Source of the DNA: Perkinsus olseni
Lineage: Eukaryota; Perkinsozoa; Perkinsida; Perkinsidae
NCBI GenBank assembly: GCA_013115135.1
Contig: JABANP010000003.1
Location: forward strand, 62,001 to 126,000
DNA length: 64,000 nt
Direction: 5' to 3'
In this document: positions 5,964 to 30,500 of the stretch, piece by piece
Layout of the letters: each line of letters opens with the position of its first letter
How positions within the stretch are numbered: the first letter of the stretch is position 1
Made by a program: the position numbers and the translations under genes
Notes under the pieces: model-generated
The model's database searches: none
Seen by the model: the letters and a program-made list of their open reading frames with translations, nothing else
Told to the model about the DNA's origin: nothing

Positions 5964-8900
5964 ATGAACCCGCCTAGAGCCCCGGCAGGGATGGCAATGG
6001 GAAAGTGGAATCTGGACTCAGCTAGCACCACTACCGCGGGTGATGAGGAGGCCCAGGGGACCGGTACTAGTACCTCGTAGCTTCATACTCAGACAGCCGA
6101 GGGGAGCCCATGTAGGCCCCCTGGCAGGTGACAGCGAGAGCCATCGCCAGTTGGACGCTATCCAGAGGCGAGGCTTCGACGGCCCGTCTTTAAAGGAGCG
6201 GCTACTGCGTCTGATGGTCTCGAACGAGGAGACCCTCGAGCGTGTGGAGCAGTTGGAGAGGCAGTTCGATGATCTCCGTGGGGCCTTCGAGGCTTTGGCC
6301 GCCGTTGTGCCTCCACAGATGTCACGAGAGATCGCGGGAAGGTAGTACGGGGAAGCTCGTCAGTGGGCCAGATCGTATCCTGTAGATTCGGTCTCGCATG
6401 GTTCGACCTTGGATGCTCCTCCGATGCTCTCGATTCTCCAGTGGATCTGAGCAGGCGGGACACTCCTGTGACGGCGGCCGGCAGCAGCAGTCGGCAGTGT
6501 TGCCCTTGCCGTTTGTGGGTGTCTGAATGCCTTGGGCTGCCAAGTATGGCTGTGGGCATCACAACTGGCTGTTGATCGCCTCGTGCAGGGTTGAGGGTGT
6601 TCGCCTCGCCTGCGTTGAGGCTTCGAGTATGCCTCCAGAACGAGACCCTCGGCACGTCATGGACATCAGCAGAGGTCGATTGGAGTGACCATCCGACTTG
6701 GGAGCCTCCTACGGGTGGTCTGCAGTGCCGAACTGGTAACCGCGCTTCTTCCTTCATTTTCGCCTCCGCTGCCAGCTGTGGCCCTCCGAATGGGAATTAC
6801 GGTGTCCTCTTTCGTAGTGGCCTCTATGCGCTACCGCTTAGCTTCTCGCAGCCTCCCTCCTGTACCCCTCAGGCGATGAAATTCGGCTGTCCGTCGTGAG
6901 CCCCGACGCTGTCGTGGGGGAGTCCCTGCTCACCACACTCAGAGCGGACGACGGAGGGCGAATGGAGGTCCCTCTGTGGAGAGGCACCGCTGGTGACTCC
7001 TCCCTCAGGCTGCCCTCGGGCAGAGCAGTAAGTCCGTCGGGGGAGAATGCCTTCGCTGATCTCTCTTCGTCCCTTCTATCCTCCATCTTTTCCTGGTCGA
7101 CTATCTGGGCCTTCTTTGGTGAGGTAGAGGCCAGTAAAACTCTTGCCGCCAAACCGTCCTACGGTTGCCGTTGATCACCGGCTGCCAGTTGTTAATGGCA
7201 GTTTGGCTGTAGATCGTCAGACCTGGACGTCTTCGCACAGCGAAGCTCGCAGTAGATGGGAACGACCCCGGAGGGCCTGCCTCCAGGTGCTTCAGATGGC
7301 CCAGTCCGGTCCTCCGCCGGTCACTGCAGTGGTTCGTCTCATCGCCATAGACGATGTGGACCTCGCCTCCGACCCCCCGCCATCAGCCGTCTCTGTCACC
7401 TTCACTGTCAAGTCCTCGGGCCAGGCTCAGCAGCTACGATTGCCCCACGACTCCTCGATGGACGCTCAACCAGTGGAGCTCCTTTTGGACTCTCTAGTTG
7501 AGAAAGAGCAAGTCAGGGTTAGTTTGCAAGTGGACGGCTGGGGAGTAGTCGGCGTTGGAGAGAAGGTGAGAAGCCGCTGCCCCTGAACGTACCATGCCCT
7601 CCCTCAGACGCTCAACCCTAGGCTGGCGTCCGAGGAGCTACTCATAGAGCTGTGGCGGGCCGATGATGGCCCGTCGACCATGTCGGACGCCAGCGGCGGT
7701 TGTGGCGGCGGCCAGGATTGTGTTGGCATCATCACAGTGCATGTCACATACTCCTAGTTTCCACACCCTCATTGTGTTGTGCTTTCCTTCACCCCTGGCC
7801 GATGGGCTCCCTTTAGTCGTTTTTATAATGTCAACGGCTGTAGCACTTGCCGCGCTCTCCGCTGCCGTCACTCATGCCCAGTTGGCCACTGGTGCTGCTG
7901 AGCGGCTGGCAGACCAGCTGGTCGAGGAACGGAGCCTCACCGAGCCCCCGCCTCGGACGATACACAAGACCGCGGCGCCGCGGGAAAGCCCCCCGGCCAG
8001 TCAGCCAGTGCCCATCATAGCGCCTAAGGTCCGTGCGCCCGAGCCAAAGCGGATCGATGGCCCCTCCGTCTTGCTGCCCCAAGCCGAGGAGGCCGCCGCG
8101 GCCGCGAGTGATGTTGGTGGGGGATGGGATGTTGGTGATGTGGACTTAGAGGCAGAGGATGGGGCCTCCACGACGGGCGTGCTAAAGGCCTCTGGTGCAA
8201 ACAGGAGTATAGCAGCCGATAAGAATGAACCCGCAACGGAGGTCTCGGGTTCGATACTCGGGGACGACATCAACGAAGATGGCTGGGATGTCGAAGGCCT
8301 CGACGAGGAGCCCGGCTGGGAGGTGGACGACATCGGCATGGCCCCGCCCTCGAGCGATCTTCTTGGTCGGTTTACCCAGCGCCCTGCCTCCCTTGTAGCG
8401 GAGCTGGTAGCAGATGGTGACCCTTGTAAGATGCGCTCGGCTGTCGTCGAGATCGTTGCCGCCGGAGGCGTGTGGAGCGGGTCGTGTGCTGACTTCATTG
8501 CTGCTGTCCGAGCGGGGTTCAGCCATCGCCCACATGCTCCTGGTAAGTGCCAAGCCTGCGTAGCTCCTCGTCGTCTACCTCTCTTCCTTTAGAAGTCCCT
8601 GCAGGACGTTTGGGACAGCCTCTGCCTGGTCTTCGGTTACCCTGGGGGCCTCTCGCGGCTGATACCACTCTCTCCTACGACGACTGATGATTTCGTGGTG
8701 CAGCTAGTGAATGATGGGATGGGACTAAATGCTGGGATATGGCGGTCAGTAGGAGACTCCTCAGCCCTGGATGACCAGGTAAGCCTGTTCCCTGCTCGGT
8801 CCCGCCAATCGTGAATCCGTGGGGGTGCGGTAGGCTTTGTATGGCGCCTTTCCTAGGTTCACACTCTTCGTAGCTATGAAGATGGAGACATGGTCACCAC

Positions 8901-9311
8901 TGAGCCCTCTGGACTGGCTCTGCCTCCTCTGGGCCAACCATGCGTCAGATGCGCCTTCGAACTCTCTTCGAGACCGTTTGCTCGACTGGTGAGTGGATGA
9001 CGTTGCTCCTCTCTCGATAATGAGCGCTCTCCAGTTACCTCGACTCGGTCAAGGCGATCGGCTTCGAGAGCTCGGGTGACTTGCTAGCGACGTTGACGCC
9101 CCTCCCCGAGGATTCCAAGGCAAGCTTGGCTGGGAGTCCTGTGGCTAGAAATCTTCCGACTGTTTGCATGCAGGTTCGATGTGCCGTGCCCGACCTGTTG
9201 AAAGCAACATGGGAAGAGGCAGGCGATTTGGTGGAGGCCCTGCTGCGTCGGCGAGGCCAGCCGTCCCCGAGCAGTGGTCTCTCTGAGGCTGAGGAGTTTT
9301 CTCTTGTCTAA
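5964..9311 (+). CDS. C2-domain protein with coiled coil and acidic GWDV repeats
   Basis: This multi-exon gene has a tentative start at 5964 (MNPPRAPAGMAMGKW). A coiled coil comes first (about 6150-6345, SLKERLLRLMVSNEETLERV). Two beta-rich segments that look like C2 domains follow. The first (about 6600-7030) has WSDHPTWEPP followed by DEIRLSVVSPDAVVGESLL. The second (about 7290-7760) runs from VVRLIAIDDVDLAS to GIITVHVTY. An acidic region carries GGWDVGDVDLEAED and DGWDVEGLDEEPGWEVDDIG (8115-8340), and a helical C-terminal region (about 8350-9311) ends EAEEFSLV with TAA. Clean short introns include one after GVGEK near 7565. Membrane or vesicle-associated scaffolding is an inference. Aspartates expected in a calcium-binding C2 are not obvious. 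Several internal exon borders are unresolved. Confidence 0.6.
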
Positions 9312-9490: not shown

Positions 9491-12400
9491 ATGTCACACG
9501 CGGATTCACGGGCCGACAAGACTCCGCCAGTTATAGCGCTTTTCGATCTTGATTGCTTCTACGCCCAAGTGGAACGCCGTCGTCTCGGCATCCCTAGTGA
9601 CGTCCCCTTCGTCGTGTCTCAATGGGATTTGGTCTTGGCAGTGGACTACTCAGCCCGCAAGATACCCGGGGTGTGCTTCCCTTCCCCCTGCCTGGAAGTT
9701 GAGCCTTGTCGCAGGTGAAGCGCGGAGCACCCACGTCGATCGCGGAGAAGGCCGGAGCGAGGAGCGCTCATGTGGAAGTCGTGGACGTGGTCACCGGCGA
9801 GTGTTTCCCTGACGGACCGCCACCGGGAGAGCCTCGTGATCGCTACAGAGTTTCCTTGGACCGCTACAGGGACGCCAGCGAGGAGGGTGAGTGGGCCACC
9901 ACGGCTGCGGAGCAGCGGCTGCCGGTAACGACTTATCTGAGAGAACTGCTGACTCAGCAGTGGCTTAGCAGTGCTGAGACCAGACGACGTGGTGATGTCA
10001 GTTATGCGAGCCCTTCGCACTGCCCTGCCGGAGTCGGCCCCTCTTGAGCGTGCTAGTATCGATGAGGTCTTCGTCGACTTGACAAGTCTCTGTGGAGAAG
10101 AGCAGGAAGAGCAGATGCCTGCCGGGATCAAGTGGGCCGGTGGAGAGGTATGCCCGAAGACGAGCACGACTCGTGCTCACCGATTCTCTGGCGCCAAGGA
10201 CGCCGTCATCACGCCCAAGTGCACGGGAATTCCGGCAGGTTTTTCGGCTGCACTCGCAACTTCGCGGCTGTTCTCTGATAGCGACCATTGAACAGTCCTG
10301 GTTTGTTCGCAGTGGACGCGGTCCGACGTTACAACGATCTTCTCCCCGGATTGAGCTGTTCCCAAACCAACCACTGCGAGTTCGCTTTCAGGTCGGCAAC
10401 GCGGCTCTGCAAGAAGGTGCCATCTGGGCCGAGCGGCTCCGCAAAGAAGTGGAGTCCATCACCAGCTTTACGATGTCGGCAGGAGTGGCCAGCAACCGGC
10501 AGCTGGCGAAGCTGGCCTGCGGTGTCAACAAGCCCGATGCCGTCACTGCCCTCAGCGATAACAAGGTAGGTCTGCCCTCCTTTGCTGACAATCTGTAGCG
10601 TGTCGGGCAGATACTGGACTTCATGGCTGGCGTGAAGGTTAGGTCCCTACGAGGGGTCGGCAGGGCCACCTTCAATGATATTGAGAGGCTCCTGCCGTGG
10701 CTCACTGGTGACACCAAGTGCAGTGAAATATGGCCCGTGCTTAACGACCTCGAACCCGAGCCAGCTGACGCTGAGCTCGTGGCTTGGTTGAAGCTGGCCT
10801 CGAGGGGGCGAGATCCGATAGAGAATGCCAAAGTGGTGAAGGACTCTGAATCTCTGAAGGCTGGCAGCGTCAGCGCCTCGAAGATTTTCCGACCTTACCT
10901 GAAGGAAGTGACCAAGACGAATTTCTGGATAGAATCTTTGGCGAGAGATGTTGTGGAGCGTGTGAAGGCCCGGGCCCCGCAGTTCCCGAAGAGTCTCTGC
11001 GTTACACTCGGACGCGAGGCGACGGCGACCTACGCCACCAAGAGTCGGCGGTGCCCTATGCCGACCCTTGACAAGGTTGTCGTTACTGCCAAGCAGATGG
11101 CTGCGCCGCTGATATCCTCCTTTGGGAAGGTGGGGATGATCACCATCAGCGCCTTCGACCTCCAGGAGCCCCCTGGACCGGCTGGCTCTACTGCCCTCGC
11201 CGCCGCTGGGGAGGCGACTGCCGGTTCTGTGGGCCATACTAAAGGGGCAGTTGACGCCTTCTTTGCGAGCAGTCGGTTGCACTTTCTTGGGACGTGGCGG
11301 AGGCGCTTTCGGCAGTTCCTCGAGGAATGCCAACCTGCCGAGGAGAAATGGGGAGAAGGGGAGGTCCCGAACGGGATCGTCGAGGAGCTCCGCGAAGAAT
11401 GCGAGCGGCAGCTAGAGCCCAACTCGGAGGCCGCCAAGCGGTTCATGCTCTGCGACTTCGACAGCTTCTTCGCCTGTGTCGCGCAGTTGCAAGCGACGGG
11501 CGTCCCCGAATCCCCGAAACCCGATGGCCGTTGTTTCTGGTATGGGCCGGGGGAGCGAGATCTGCAGCGCCAACTACGCAGCCAGGAAGTACGGGGTTTC
11601 CGGCAGCATGTGGCTGGCTGAGGTAAAGGACATATGCCCGGATCTGGAGAAGGTGCCGGTGACTAGCGAGCTCCTCACGCAGTGCAACACCGCGTGGAAG
11701 CAACTGCTGCGCTTGATGGCTGTCGTTGGCGGGGGTACTCTGGATCGTGTCGTTGCCAAGAGCGTTGACGAGGCCATTGTTGATGTATCAGGCGACTGCC
11801 GCTACTCTGATGAAGCAGCGGTTGCTCGGGCACTCCAGAAAGCGGTCACTCAGGCCACTGGGCTTCCCTGCTCGGTTGGTGTGGCCGATAGTCACGTCCT
11901 CGCCAAAATTGCCACCACCCAAGCCAAGCCTCGAGGCTTGAGGGTGCTCAACAATAAGTCCTTTCCTCGCTGACCTGCCGCTGCACATGCTCCCGCAGGT
12001 CGGGTATCGGACTCTAGGGAAGCTGCAAAATGAATTCGGCTTGGCTACCGTAGGCGACCTGTTGGACCCGAACCTCGCTCCCCTCTTGGCAGAGTCCTTC
12101 GGGGTGAAGACGGCCGAGCGGATGCTCGCCAACGCCCGAGGGGAGGACTACAGGAACGACTTAGTCACCGACATCTCCACCGTCAGCGCGGACAAGAATT
12201 TCGGCATCCGGAACGTGACACCAGAGTCTGCCAGGCAGTTGGTCCGAGCCCTCGTTGCACAAGTGACACCGTTGTTGGAAGGGCTTGTCCCCGAGCGAGT
12301 TATCCTTCGGCTGTACCTCGCCCCTGACGATTGGGTTGAACCCTTCAAGTTCATGGGGATCGGTGCGTGCTATCAGTGGAGCCGCTCTTGTGCTGTATCT

Positions 12401-12796
12401 CTGGCGAAAAACGACATTGCAACACTCGCCGTGGGGCTGCTGGAGGGCGTCGAAGTGCACCGGATTCGGGGCGCCGGGGTGGCTGTACGAGTACACGCTA
12501 AGGAGCAGGTCAACAGCGCGGGAAATGGCGATGAGAACCAGCAAACTCTGACCGACTTCCTCGAGAAGAAAGCGCAGCCCTTGGCAAAGAAGCGACGCAC
12601 ATCCACCGTTGATGCCGCTACTTCGGAGGCCATCGCCAGGCTGGAAGAAGAGTCCACAATTCGATCGTGGCGTGATGGCGACGCCGACGCCCAACTTGCA
12701 GAGTTTGCACACTTAGGGTTCGACTATGCCCGTGGGTCCGATGTCGAGAAGAAGTTCCGAGAGATGGTGAATTTGTATGCACGCTTTGATGCATGA
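9491..12796 (+). CDS. Y-family DNA polymerase fusion: Pol eta followed by REV1
   Basis: Two complete translesion-polymerase cores lie in one gene. The Pol eta part opens with ALFDLDCFYAQVE (metal-binding Asp), has DYSARK/IPGVKRG split by an intron at 9671-9714, then ERASIDEVFVDLT (catalytic Asp-Glu), MSAGVASNRQLAKLACGVNK and the thumb VRSLRGVG. Its little-finger region runs straight into REV1 sequence inside one uninterrupted frame (10623-11520): SRLHFLGTWRRRFRQFL (the REV1 Arg-Leu dC-templating segment), LCDFDSFFACV, then KSVDEAIVDVS, SVGVADSHVLAKIATTQAKP, VGYRTLGKL and VSADKNFGIR. The tail has QQTLTDFL, a PCNA-binding PIP-box pattern, and KKRR. Other introns: 9887-9971 and 10566-10598 (33 bases). 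The region 10148-10391 is unresolved. Single surplus bases near 11523 and 11964 shift the frame within the REV1 core. No BRCT domain and no recognisable REV1 C-terminal domain are seen. Confidence 0.9.
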
Positions 12797-17046: not shown

Positions 17047-17250
17047 GTCGACTGTACTCGAACAGGATCACTTATGTAGTGATTTCCTTTCGTTCACAAG
17101 AGTACTCTTGACAAAACCCTAAACCGTGATGATGACGTATATACCACATCCACTCGGAGGTTTAGTCCACTCCATTAACTTGTGTGTGCGACTTCGATGA
17201 GTTCATCTCCTTGCTAGGAGTCTTGGGTGTTGGTAATACTGAGCGGTTAA
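17047..17250 (+). ncRNA. U3 small nucleolar RNA, copy 1
   Basis: A 204-base segment matches U3 snoRNA architecture. The 5' end GTCGACTGTACTCGAACAGG resembles yeast (GUCGACGUACUU) and plant (ACUUGAACAGGAUC) U3, and the box A region continues GATCACTTATGTAGTGATT, which can form a hairpin. Box C' is GTGATGA at 17126, and box D CTGA lies at 17239-17242. The two are flanked by complementary AACCG (17122-17126) and CGGTT (17244-17248), which close the terminal stem. Internal GATGAG and TGTTGG segments occupy the box B and box C positions. The length fits U3. A second copy 5 kb away is nearly identical across the same length. U3 guides 18S rRNA processing in the SSU processome. The exact 3' end is inferred. 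Confidence 0.82.
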
Positions 17251-22002: not shown

Positions 22003-22206
22003 GTCGACTGTACTCGAACAGAATCACTTATGTAGTGATTACCTTTCGTTCACAAGAGTACTCTTGACAAAACCCTAAACCGTGATGATGACATGTATAC
22101 CACATCCACTCGGAGGTTTAGTCCACTCCATTAACATGGGTGTGCGACTTCGATGAGTCCATCTCCTTTCGGGGAGCATTGGGTGATGGTAATACTGAGC
22201 GGTTAA
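22003..22206 (+). ncRNA. U3 small nucleolar RNA, copy 2
   Basis: This is the second copy of the 204-base U3-like sequence, same strand as copy 1 and with the same length. It keeps the GTCGAC 5' end, GTGATGA box C' at 22082, CTGA box D at 22195-22198 and the AACCG/CGGTT closing stem. Substitutions are scattered; one changes GGATC to GAATC in the box A region, so copy 1 is closer to the consensus. The flanks on both sides differ from those of copy 1, so the duplicated unit is the RNA itself rather than a larger block. A T-run follows at 22217-22222. It may be a functional second gene or a recent pseudocopy. Confidence 0.75.
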
Positions 22207-27504: not shown

Positions 27505-30500
27505 TTACGAGAACTCCTTCACGGGAGCAGTCTCTTGCCAGAAACGGCGGAAGAAGTCGAAGAACTCGGCCGAAGTGCTAACCTTGTACCTGCCAGATCT
27601 GGCCTCCAGCACAACACGATACCCTATGACGTACGGCGTGGGGTTAGTCGGCCTGAGATGGTCCTTTCTGAAGGTCTTCCTCGACTCGTTGAAGTGCTGC
27701 TTTGGCACTGTGAATATCGGGGCGATCGTTCTCCTTCGTGCGAGGGGACGATGTCAGATGAACTGCTTTACCTGAACAGTTTCATCGGTGACAAGAGGAG
27801 GGAAGCTCCAGCAGTAGTGACTTTTACTACCATCCTTCCACACGCATATCAGCAAGGGCTCAACCTTCCTCGGCGTCACGTAGCACCTGACGTCGCAAAC
27901 CCGAAGCTTACGGGAGCGAAGGGGGTTAAAAGCAGATGTACCTCTTCTGTTCGTCGAATAGATGACGACAGAAGACCTTGGTGTTGGGCTGGGGGACGGG
28001 CTCCTCCTCGCCCTGCATGATGTCAAGGATGGCCATGTCGTCCTGACCGTATCTGAGGCAACCACCACAACGGCACGTGCGGTGCAGACTTAACGGCTCC
28101 GAGGAGTGCTACAATCGATAAACTGCTTTCCTTGACGGAACGCCTTGTTTCTCGAAATCCTGTGACAGTTTCATCCGAGGCTGACCATTGAGTTCAACCA
28201 GCTTGTACCTAAGGATACGCGCGAGTCTGCCAAGGCACACGATGGAGCCCCCTGCTTCCCTACACCATTCCAAGCGCCGGCTGAGCCTGGCAGGTGACGA
28301 GATTCGTCCCGATACCGAAGGAGTCGATGGAATGAGGCTGGTCGTGAAGCGAGAGCAGTACAGCTTCATTGATGTCGTTGGAAGCCACAATCCGAGCTGG
28401 GGGAAACAGTATCCACATAGATAGACTCACGACTGGTCAGCTCACATCCTGCTATGAACTGGAACCCTTCGTTGGCAAAAGCATCAGCAGCAGTCGAGAA
28501 AACCTCCCGAGCTCTCATACTCAAGTACCTAGCAGCATCACAACATACCGTCACCGCGCCACGAAAATACACTCACGCAAGATCGCCGCTATCCAAGCGG
28601 ATGCCGACGGCCTGGATCTGAGCGAACCTCCAAAGGCCGAGGGCCACACTGAGGTAGTTGGGGACTCCGGAAAGGATGGTCTCATATGTGTCCACAAGTG
28701 CGAGGAAGTTGGTAGGGAACGCTTGGGCGTAGCGAATGAAGGCCGCCAGCTCGCCGTCGTTGCAGCAGTTGACCTAAAGATTCCTCCGTCAACCTCCTCG
28801 CTGGCACATCATCCTCCTACTTGGAAGCCTATCGCCTCGCACAGCTCCTCGCGAGCGCTGATGCAAGCCTGTTCGAACTCATGCGTGTTGACCTTGGCCG
28901 TGAGGGATTCAGCTGACGAAAAACAAACGCATGAGCAGCTACTGTCGTTACGGTTCCTCGCCGCTACGATCTGGGGAAATCCTTGTATCCTCGTCGAGGT
29001 CCTCAAGTGAATGGAAACTGTTGACGAAGGCGTGAGCATGGGTACCAGCAATGGGTATACCAAATACATGGCCAGCCTTCACGTTGGAGGTACCTGCAGC
29101 ATCAGCCCGTCCCACACACTCAGATAGCTTCGGTACCCCTACCATCGAAGCCTCCAACGTAGGCGTATCGGCTAGCAGTGAGCGCACCATCGGGGCCCTG
29201 AGCACGACGAGCGCCGAACTCGAGCAACTGAGCGTCGTCTCCGGCGGCTATTCGAAAACGCGCCGCCTGCGTAGCGACCTGAAGAAGAGCGGTGCGAATT
29301 CCCGAGAGATCCGTCGGTCGTACTAAACAGGGGAAGTTGACCAAGTTGAGGATAGCAGTCTCCATGAGCTGACAGACGATCAGCGGGCCAGCCACTCGGA
29401 GCACCGGTTCTCGGGGGAAGACGAACTGAACTTCTCACGGTGGACGGCAGACTCCGATCGGTCAATAGGGGTATTACATCTCCCTCTCGGACGGCATGGA
29501 TGGTTAGGTTACTGGCATCTAGCGTTAGAAGATACTGGAAAAATTCGGGGTCGGCCTCCGGCATTTGACTCTGAAAATGACCAAATATCATACGGTGGTG
29601 GTGGAGGCACAGGCGAGCCTACCTGCAGGTAGTCGATGTGAAGCTGCGTGAACCGGAAGGTGTTAACATATCGCACGACCTCATCAATACCTGACAAGGA
29701 GAGCATTCAACAAGAGAGGACGAACAGAGCATTGAAGAAGAGAGGACAAGGAGAGCATTCAAAAAGGGGGGAGAAGGAGAGCATTCAACAAGAGAGGACG
29801 AACAGAGCATTGAAAAAGAGAAGACGAACAGAGCATTCAACAAGAGAGGACGAACAGAGCATTCAACAAGAGAGGACGAACAGAGCATTCAACAAGAGAG
29901 GACGAGGAGAGCATTCAACAAGAGAGGACGAACAGAGCATTCAACAAGAGAGGACGAACAGAGCATTCAAAAAGAGAGGACAAGGAGAGCATTCAAAAAG
30001 GGGGGAGAAGGAGAGCGTTCAACGAGAGAGGAGACGGAGAGCGGGTATTGATTCTCTGAAAAGCAACATTGTCGGTCCCTTAGCCTGCCGTACCCGCACA
30101 AACAGTGAACTCTCCCCCAAACGGGCACTTCCGAAAGTAGACGTCGAAAACCGCATGTTCCTTCTCCTTGCCGGACTTCCTAAATAGGATTCGCTCCTAG
30201 GTGAGCGAGAATGACGAGGAGAAGCACCGACTACCAGTAAGCATAGGCCATGCTGATCTGGTAGAGGTCAGTGAAGGTCGCCTCGATGATGTCGGAATGA
30301 GGCTCTCCCATCTCGCTGTCGCAGCGTAATCGAGAGAACGCATGTCCGTCACACGCTGAAAGATAACCTCCACGCTCTCCAAAAATCCAGCGATTCAGCG
30401 GCGGGGAGGTATCCAATCCCCTCGCGTATTTTGCTGAGTCGACCTAAGCTTCCCTTACGAGATTCACATGCCGCGTATCCCCTTGCAATATAAGAGCTGC

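What the first reader, a model, noticed from the sequence alone, without database searches (positions are those of the whole stretch)
9491..12796. Natural fusion of two translesion polymerases: Pol eta joined head-to-tail to REV1
Seen: Pol eta signatures (FDLDCFYAQVE, ERASIDEVFVDLT, MSAGVASNRQLAKLAC) and REV1 signatures (SRLHFLGTW, LCDFDSFFACV, KSVDEAIVDVS, KIATTQAKP) occur in one gene, and the switch happens inside an uninterrupted open frame (10623-11520) with a linker of about 40 residues. Known: elsewhere Pol eta and REV1 are separate genes, and REV1 recruits Pol eta through its C-terminal domain. Inference: the fusion makes that recruitment permanent, giving one enzyme that can insert opposite UV dimers and place dC opposite abasic or bulky G lesions. 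I know of no described Pol eta-REV1 fusion.
Basis: partly seen in the sequence, partly recalled or inferred. Interest (0 to 1): 0.95.

Follow-up and report, generated by a model that had tools for sequence, protein, structure and literature searches.

The report
Two lesion-bypass polymerases fused together
In a shellfish parasite, and in its dinoflagellate relatives, two DNA polymerases that copy past damage (Pol eta and REV1) are encoded as one protein, and the REV1 part appears to lack the pieces by which it normally grips its partners.

Summary
Window 9491-12796 encodes a Pol eta catalytic core joined by about 35 residues to a REV1 catalytic core. One stop-free exon (10611-11516) runs from the Pol eta thumb into the REV1 palm, so splicing does not separate them. 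The contig matches a Perkinsus olseni record naming the protein 'deoxycytidyl transferase'. The same junction occurs in 40 database proteins: 3 Perkinsus or Perkinsus-like, 23 from unnamed organisms, 14 dinoflagellate-type (three with transcriptome names). Trees put N-halves with Pol eta and C-halves with REV1. REV1 catalytic residues and the Arg-Leu pair that templates dCTP are invariant in 39 of 39. Pfam finds BRCT, UBM or REV1_C in none of 40. No stand-alone POLH or REV1 was detected in this genome; Pol kappa-like and REV3-like genes were. Two +1 frame changes (near 11520 and 11960) interrupt the window's copy but not its relatives; assembly error is likeliest. Nine searches of an open library listed no paper describing the fusion. 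Best reading: an ancestral Pol eta-REV1 fusion in the perkinsid-dinoflagellate line, a two-active-site bypass enzyme in which covalent linkage replaces REV1-CTD recruitment. Function is inferred. A Prorocentrum protein fuses Pol iota to REV1.

The parts
9491..9670 (+). Exon 1: start codon, Pol eta palm with first catalytic Asp (FDLDCFY)
   Evidence: tblastn with P. chesapeaki P0002
9715..9886 (+). Exon 2: Pol eta fingers
   Evidence: GT-AG intron 9671-9714
10002..10147 (+). Exon 3: Pol eta palm with catalytic Asp-Glu (ERASIDE)
   Evidence: acceptor at 10001 supported by P0001 and P0002
10392..10565 (+). Exon 4: Pol eta palm (MSAGVASNRQLAKLACGVNKP)
10611..11162 (+). Exon 5, first part: Pol eta thumb and PAD / little finger
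   Evidence: aligned in A1
11163..11267 (+). Linker between the two polymerases, same exon, no stop (35 residues)
11268..11318 (+). REV1 N-digit motif (SSRLHFLGTWRRRFRQF): Arg-Leu pair equivalent to yeast Arg324-Leu325
11445..11516 (+). REV1 palm with first catalytic Asp (LCDFDSFF); end of the continuous exon-5 frame supported by relatives
11506..11524 (+). First +1 frame change, no plausible intron; absent from P0002 and P0003
11524..11957 (+). REV1 fingers and palm (GSEICSANYAAR; catalytic Asp-Glu in KSVDEAIVDVS)
   Evidence: IMS match over the joined half
11957..11966 (+). Second +1 frame change, no plausible intron; absent from P0002 and P0003
11966..12796 (+). REV1 thumb, PAD with G-loop (FKFMGIG), PIP-like QQTLTDFL from 12539, C-terminal tail, stop

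Best explanation
The gene is a natural fusion of DNA polymerase eta (N-terminal half) and the catalytic core of REV1 (C-terminal half), encoded as one polypeptide. Shown by sequence: one exon spans the junction, the junction is shared by perkinsids and dinoflagellates, both active sites are kept, and Pfam finds no BRCT, UBM or C-terminal recruiting domain. Inferred: the fusion arose once, before perkinsids and dinoflagellates split. Inferred: the protein docks on PCNA through PIP-like motifs (seen in Perkinsus tails and most dinoflagellate-type linkers) and, outside Perkinsus, through C-terminal ubiquitin-binding-like zinc fingers. Once docked it offers two inserters side by side: Pol eta for UV dimers and other lesions that still pair, REV1 for abasic sites and minor-groove G adducts, where Arg of the N-digit templates dCTP. 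Covalent linkage thus does the job that REV1-CTD binding to the Pol eta RIR does elsewhere. The confidence given is for a real one-polypeptide fusion with two intact cores; for docking and hand-over as described I would say about 0.5.
For: One continuous frame across the junction. Best PDB relatives: N half Pol eta, E 3.2e-17; C half REV1, E 3.8e-25. The same architecture in 40 proteins: 40 of 40 keep the REV1 SxDE motif, 35 also the Pol eta Asp-Glu motif ahead of it, 31 also the first Pol eta palm motif. Three have Trinity transcript names from EukProt, P0006, P0028 and P0035, the last lacking the Pol eta palm. Trees: Pol eta/iota and REV1 halves part at SH-aLRT 100. In the careful tree, fusion C-halves are one side against 6 canonical REV1s, 100/99 with the iota fusion and 100/98 for the 19 eta fusions; N-halves are one side of a branch at 88/89. 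Both halves show the same Perkinsus-plus-unnamed versus dinoflagellate split. Invariant in 39 of 39: SRLHF, the first REV1 catalytic Asp, and Asp-Glu. Invariant in 13 of 13: Pol eta SIDE and the Gln and Arg at the Q38/R61 positions. AlphaFold2 model of P0004, pLDDT 84.9, matches REV1 (3gqc, 1.4e-27) and Pol eta (4j9q, 4.6e-27). BRCT, UBM and REV1_C in 0 of 39 fusions at E 0.07 and not in P0002 at E 0.1, against BRCT 4, REV1_C 3 and UBM 5 of 6 canonical REV1s. No separate POLH, REV1 or POLI seen in the genome, while a Pol kappa-like gene is found.
Against: No P. olseni transcript or protein was seen here. The window copy has two +1 frame changes. N-half monophyly is not strongly supported (88/89), and in the quick tree the dinoflagellate and Perkinsus-side N-halves did not join directly. 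No apicomplexan or chromerid POLH or REV1 was sampled, so the date of the fusion is loose. A 2019 table lists PolH and REV1 of dinoflagellates under separate gene ids, including a PolH id (symbB.v1.2.015189) far in number from its REV1 ids (PMC6680887), so stand-alone Pol eta may coexist in dinoflagellates. PIP-like patterns are not above chance in the linkers of the 23 proteins of unnamed organisms (0) and only modestly in their tails (7 of 22, 3.1 expected). Perkinsus lacks the zinc finger (0 of 3). A diverged REV1 C-terminal domain could escape Pfam: 3 of 6 canonical REV1s also show none. The two-core model has pTM 0.54, so the relative placing of the cores is unknown.
Confidence: 0.9

Rival explanations
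1. Gene-model or assembly artefact: two neighbouring genes read as one.
For: Merged models do occur: the P. chesapeaki model P0002 also swallows the upstream gene, and two models, P0036 and P0037, carry a CorA domain at the N side.
Against: One stop-free exon spans the junction. 23 proteins predicted from contigs of unnamed organisms have the same junction, as do Trinity-named transcript proteins.
Confidence: 0.03
2. The P. olseni copy is a decaying gene: the two +1 frame changes are real and the fusion is dead or used only in part in this strain.
For: Two frame changes for which I found no GT-AG intron, and no second copy in the assembly.
Against: The three frame segments stay 81, 90 and 86% identical to P0003, with the end of the protein intact. 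Codon-position G+C is kept. Relatives are unbroken at both places. Length errors are common in long-read assemblies (general knowledge; how this assembly was made was not checked).
Confidence: 0.1
3. The frame changes are programmed +1 frameshifts, as in Perkinsus mitochondria.
For: Perkinsus mitochondrial genes have conserved frameshifts (PMC9550989, title and start of abstract in the listing). Both places here lie at proline codons (my reading).
Against: P0003 and P0002 show no frame change at these places, so the feature is not conserved.
Confidence: 0.03
4. One polypeptide exists but it is not a two-activity enzyme: REV1 acts only as a DNA-binding or docking module for Pol eta, or internal trans-splicing yields a separate REV1.
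For: A 2024 review calls the REV1 dCMP transferase activity dispensable for TLS (PMC11276120, passages). Spliced-leader RNAs are reported from Perkinsus and dinoflagellates (PMC3101222, start of abstract).
Against: The REV1 carboxylates and the Arg-Leu template pair are invariant in 39 of 39 fusions, which a purely structural role would not require.
Confidence: 0.2

Closest known systems
DNA polymerase eta (POLH / Rad30)
   Same: Catalytic core, carboxylates, conserved Gln and Arg at the Q38/R61 positions, PAD, fold
   Different: Here it is the N-terminal half of a larger protein; a PIP-like motif lies in the linker (10 of 14 dinoflagellate-type) or in the tail (3 of 3 Perkinsus); zinc fingers, where present, lie at the far end, after REV1
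REV1 deoxycytidyl transferase
   Same: N-digit SRLH motif with the Arg-Leu pair, palm carboxylates, thumb and PAD; tree position
   Different: BRCT, UBM and REV1_C found in none of 40; a Pol eta core stands on the N-terminal side where BRCT normally is
Fission yeast Eso1 (Pol eta fused to the cohesin acetyltransferase Eco1)
   Same: A natural fusion with Pol eta as the N-terminal part (PMC3542068, passages)
   Different: Its partner is an acetyltransferase, not a second polymerase
REV1-CTD / Pol eta RIR complex (TLS mutasome)
   Same: Brings Pol eta and REV1 together at PCNA (PMC11276120, passages)
   Different: Non-covalent, and shared with iota and kappa; here fixed to eta

Membership tests
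Pol eta (N half) | Y-family catalytic domain (PF00817) | tested here: met
   E 2.2e-24, residues 19-219
Pol eta (N half) | Closest to Pol eta rather than iota, kappa or REV1 | tested here: met
   PDB best hits are Pol eta; tree. For P0004, structures of eta and iota tie in Z (about 32) but identity is 32% versus 22%
Pol eta (N half) | Three catalytic carboxylates | tested here: met
   Present in the window frame; SIDE invariant in 13 of 13, first Asp at 90% or more
Pol eta (N half) | UBZ zinc finger at the C-terminus (accessory, recalled as common rather than universal) | tested here: not met
   Perkinsus 0 of 3; C2HC-type motif in 14 of 14 dinoflagellate-type and 22 of 23 unnamed-organism fusions, but after REV1; Pfam support weak: 6 of 39 hit a WRNIP1-type UBZ
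REV1 (C half) | Catalytic core closest to REV1 | tested here: met
   PDB best hits are REV1, E 3.8e-25; tree
REV1 (C half) | N-digit Arg-Leu (yeast Arg324, Leu325) for protein-templated dCTP | tested here: met
   Alignment to 2aq4; its 434-residue chain fits residues 305-738 named in PMC5645340, which puts the Arg at 324; invariant in 39 of 39
REV1 (C half) | N-terminal BRCT domain | tested here: not met
   0 of 39 at E 0.07 and not in P0002; control 4 of 6 canonical REV1s. So the C half is filed as a REV1 catalytic core, not as a canonical REV1
REV1 (C half) | C-terminal scaffold domain (REV1_C) and UBMs | tested here: not met
   0 of 39 and not in P0002; controls 3 of 6 and 5 of 6; no REV1_C match in the whole genome, with a control set of prokaryotes only
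REV1 (C half) | dCMP transferase activity | not testable with these tools
   needs purified protein

The most novel reading that the evidence does not exclude
In the perkinsid-dinoflagellate lineage REV1 has stopped being a free scaffold and become a catalytic module that is welded to an inserter polymerase: to Pol eta across the group, and to Pol iota in at least one dinoflagellate (P0038). Polymerase switching at lesions there would happen within one molecule, and Pol zeta, whose catalytic subunit still seems to be encoded, must be recruited without REV1-CTD.
Probability: 0.45. Interest if true: 0.85.

Novelty: new variant of a known kind. Interest (0 to 1): 0.78.

Why it matters
REV1 is held to work mainly as a scaffold, through its BRCT and C-terminal domains, with its catalysis a side role. 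Here a whole lineage appears to have kept the catalysis, lost those scaffold domains and replaced recruitment by fusion. That is a natural test of which REV1 function matters, and a ready-made two-active-site bypass enzyme in organisms with unusual nuclei. It also means that database names ('deoxycytidyl transferase', 'DNA polymerase eta') and a separate-gene table for dinoflagellates may need revising.

Tried and rejected
An intron bridging the two frame changes was sought by eye among GT and AG sites; none that I tried gives the right phase without removing conserved motifs. The public model P0001 does the latter: it lacks the GSEICSANYAAR and LADLPLHMLPQ stretches. An exon 3 start at 9972 was my first choice and stands in the queries; it was dropped for 10002 because P0001 and P0002 both read EEVMRAL there.

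Programmed frameshifting was rejected because relatives lack the frame changes. A prokaryote or phage source was considered: 42 phage records matched P0004 but 0 covered 80% of it; the 80 GTDB loci kept, of 398, match over one core's length, judged from the table alone. IMG/VR scans gave none with P0047 and two short matches with A2, not examined further. The organisms behind P0004, P0005 and P0040-P0060 could not be named. REV7 (HORMA) gave no match, but no control genome rang either, so nothing follows. The VIA-align list covers the Pol eta half only, so REV1 does not appear among its 50 rows; Foldseek shows it. The PIP pattern scan missed the Perkinsus tails because the tail was cut too late; one search repeats it. 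PMC12871630 was opened (outline and abstract) for a conserved REV1 helix, but that helix (M1) lies before BRCT and is not the motif seen here. Locus L007 was fetched and not used.

Limits: each protein search scored only about 8000 candidates, and one search listed 120 of 153 hits, so 40 is a lower bound. Literature: nine searches in the held open library. Searches found no paper; some searches listed only the top 20 of 40, 15 of 1456, 25 of 360, 10 of 111 and 12 of 464, and one search listed 5 of 5. No listed title or abstract start describes a Pol eta-REV1 fusion. Most subscription papers are not held.
Full report
What is there. The window lies in a 61.5 Mb assembly of 968 contigs, on contig C223 of 457,126 bases. 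The closest public protein, P0001, comes from a contig of exactly that length and is named deoxycytidyl transferase of Perkinsus olseni, so I take the organism to be P. olseni. The gene reads as five exons with GT-AG introns: 9491-9670, 9715-9886, 10002-10147, 10392-10565 and 10611 onward. Exon 5 is one stop-free frame that starts in the Pol eta thumb, ends the Pol eta PAD at about 11162, crosses a linker of 35 residues and enters REV1 with SSRLHFLGTW at 11268 and LCDFDSFF at 11445. Of 2000 single-base shuffles of this 906-nt stretch, 1 is open. Splicing therefore cannot separate the two polymerases without cutting into either.

Frame changes. After about 11516 the conserved reading moves by +1, and again by +1 at about 11960; the last frame ends at the stop at 12796. 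Relatives P0002 (P. chesapeaki) and P0003 (a 721-aa protein, 81, 90 and 86% identical in the three segments) cross both places with no gap. The segments keep a similar G+C pattern by codon position, and the locus has no second copy in the assembly. The simplest reading is two length errors in the assembly. A real defect in this strain is not excluded. The public model P0001 steps over both places and lacks conserved REV1 stretches there.

What each half is. The N half has one IMS domain and its best solved relatives are Pol eta (E 3.2e-17); the C half has a second IMS domain and its best relatives are REV1 (E 3.8e-25). A quick tree of 61 half-proteins parts Pol eta/iota from REV1 at SH-aLRT 100: 20 of 20 C-halves go with REV1, 19 of 20 N-halves with Pol eta, and the last (P0038, a long branch) with Pol iota. 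In that tree the 20 C-halves hold together at 85 and the 19 eta-fusion C-halves at 96, while the N-halves form two groups not joined directly. Careful trees of each half give the C-halves as one side against 6 canonical REV1s (100/99; 100/98 for the 19 eta fusions) and the 19 N-halves on one side at 88/89. Both halves show the same split between Perkinsus plus unnamed organisms and dinoflagellates, as expected if they have travelled together.

Where else it occurs. Three database searches returned 40 eta-REV1 proteins, a lower bound because each search scored only about 8000 candidates and one search listed 120 of 153. They are Perkinsus or Perkinsus-like (P0001-P0003), 23 proteins of unnamed organisms, mostly from metagenome sources (P0004, P0005, P0040-P0060), and 14 dinoflagellate-type (P0006, P0025-P0037), so called from tree or similarity; the named ones are Durusdinium trenchii, Effrenium voratum, Polarella glacialis and Symbiodinium natans. 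All 40 keep the REV1 SxDE motif; 35 also have the Pol eta Asp-Glu motif ahead of it and 31 also the first Pol eta palm motif; P0003 and P0034-P0037 begin, or are joined to something else, further in. P0005 is cut short in the REV1 PAD. P0006, P0028 and P0035 carry Trinity transcript names from EukProt, which is the only RNA-level evidence seen. The trees used 19 of these fusions (the window's own copy standing in for P0001, and 18 others), plus P0038, 14 Pol eta, 1 Pol iota and 6 REV1 rows chosen from the hits; the other fusions were left out as partial or as near relatives of rows already in.

Active sites. In 39 fusions (A2: the 40 without P0002) the REV1 motif SRLHF, the Asp residues of DxDxFF and the Asp-Glu of SxDE are invariant. 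The alignment to yeast REV1 2aq4, with the residue numbers given in PMC5645340 (passages), places the Arg and Leu of SRLH at Arg324, which pairs with dCTP, and Leu325, which evicts the template G. In 13 fusions (A1) the Pol eta SIDE motif and the Gln and Arg at the positions named Q38 and R61 in PDB titles are invariant; the match of positions is mine, from the alignments. AlphaFold2 on P0004 gave pLDDT 84.9 and pTM 0.54. Foldseek's best hits were human REV1 (1.4e-27) and human Pol eta (4.6e-27). Residues 1-393 matched Pol eta and Pol iota structures equally in Z (about 32), at 32% and 22% identity.

What is missing. Pfam finds BRCT, UBM or REV1_C in 0 of 39 fusions at E 0.07 (full list; at E 0.1 hid one family present in a single member) and not in P0002 at E 0.1. 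Six canonical REV1s show BRCT 4, REV1_C 3 and UBM 5, so the test misses some true domains. The C half is therefore filed as a REV1 catalytic core and not as a canonical REV1. According to a 2024 review (PMC11276120, passages), REV1 binds PCNA through BRCT and lacks a PIP box, and REV1-CTD binds the RIR of Pol eta and REV7 of Pol zeta on separate faces. In the fusions a PIP-like pattern lies in the linker in 10 of 14 dinoflagellate-type proteins (0.4 expected from shuffles) and in the tail of 3 of 3 Perkinsus proteins (Q[QR]TLTDF[FL]; 0.4 expected). In the unnamed clade it is in 0 of 23 linkers and 7 of 22 tails (3.1 expected), which is weak. C2HC-type zinc-finger motifs close the protein in 14 of 14 dinoflagellate-type and 22 of 23 unnamed-organism proteins but 0 of 3 Perkinsus. 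Calling them UBZ is an inference: 6 of 39 score on a UBZ model.

The rest of the toolkit in this genome. IMS-domain and protein searches find only this locus and a Pol kappa-like gene on C778; a thumb-family search adds one hit below cut-off on C46. A B-family locus on C105 is closest to the Pol zeta catalytic subunit (2.3e-62). So the usual extender seems to be there, but the REV1 domain that normally recruits it was not found. These searches read exons one by one and score few candidates, so absence means not detected.

Mechanism. I think the protein is a two-headed inserter that reaches stalled forks by PCNA and, outside Perkinsus, by ubiquitin contacts. Pol eta serves lesions that still pair; REV1 serves abasic sites and minor-groove G adducts by protein-templated dC insertion. 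Tethering makes the hand-over local. Shown: one open frame, both active sites, scaffold domains not found, and the spread across two groups. Inferred: docking, both activities, hand-over, and a single origin.

Against known systems. Eso1 of fission yeast is the nearest precedent known to me of a natural Pol eta fusion (PMC3542068, passages), but its partner is an acetyltransferase. A 2019 review of dinoflagellate DNA damage responses lists REV1 and PolH as separate genes, with no occurrence of the word fusion in its main text (PMC6680887, passages and part of Table 8). In its S. minutum column one PolH id (017537) and both REV1 ids (017539, 017542) are near neighbours, which would fit one fused gene split by annotation; another PolH id (015189) would be a separate copy. 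Nine searches of the held library listed no paper whose title or abstract start describes the fusion; several of those lists were capped.

A second fusion. P0038 (named Prorocentrum cordatum by one source and Polarella glacialis by another, 1169 aa) joins a Pol iota core (PDB best hit Pol iota, 2.1e-58) to a REV1 core that groups beside the eta-fusion REV1s, and has a UBA-like domain near its end. It is a long branch and rests on one cluster of two member sequences.

Noticed in passing
protein P0038 (labelled Prorocentrum cordatum or Polarella glacialis, 1169 aa): A Pol iota core fused to a REV1 core, with a UBA-like domain near the end; a second, different REV1 fusion in dinoflagellates.
   Followed up: partly
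window 17048-17248 and 22004-22204, + strand: Two matches to U3 small nucleolar RNA (Rfam RF01848, about 101 bits each), 93.7% identical over 206 bases and about 5 kb apart, with no longer repeat found around them.
   Followed up: partly
proteins P0004, P0005, P0040-P0060: A clade of eta-REV1 fusions of unnamed organisms, beside Perkinsus in both halves, with two C-terminal zinc-finger motifs in 20 of 23 members.
   Followed up: partly
window 6519-9305: The gene upstream is conserved and in the same order in P. chesapeaki, where the public model P0002 merges it with the fusion gene.
   Followed up: partly
G000 C418:32053-33114 and C889:7674-8919: Two near-identical loci that look like Pol alpha by eye, which suggests duplicates or haplotypes in the assembly.
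   Followed up: no
window 29693-30042: A short tandem repeat array with a period near 26 bases, read from self-match offsets.
   Followed up: no
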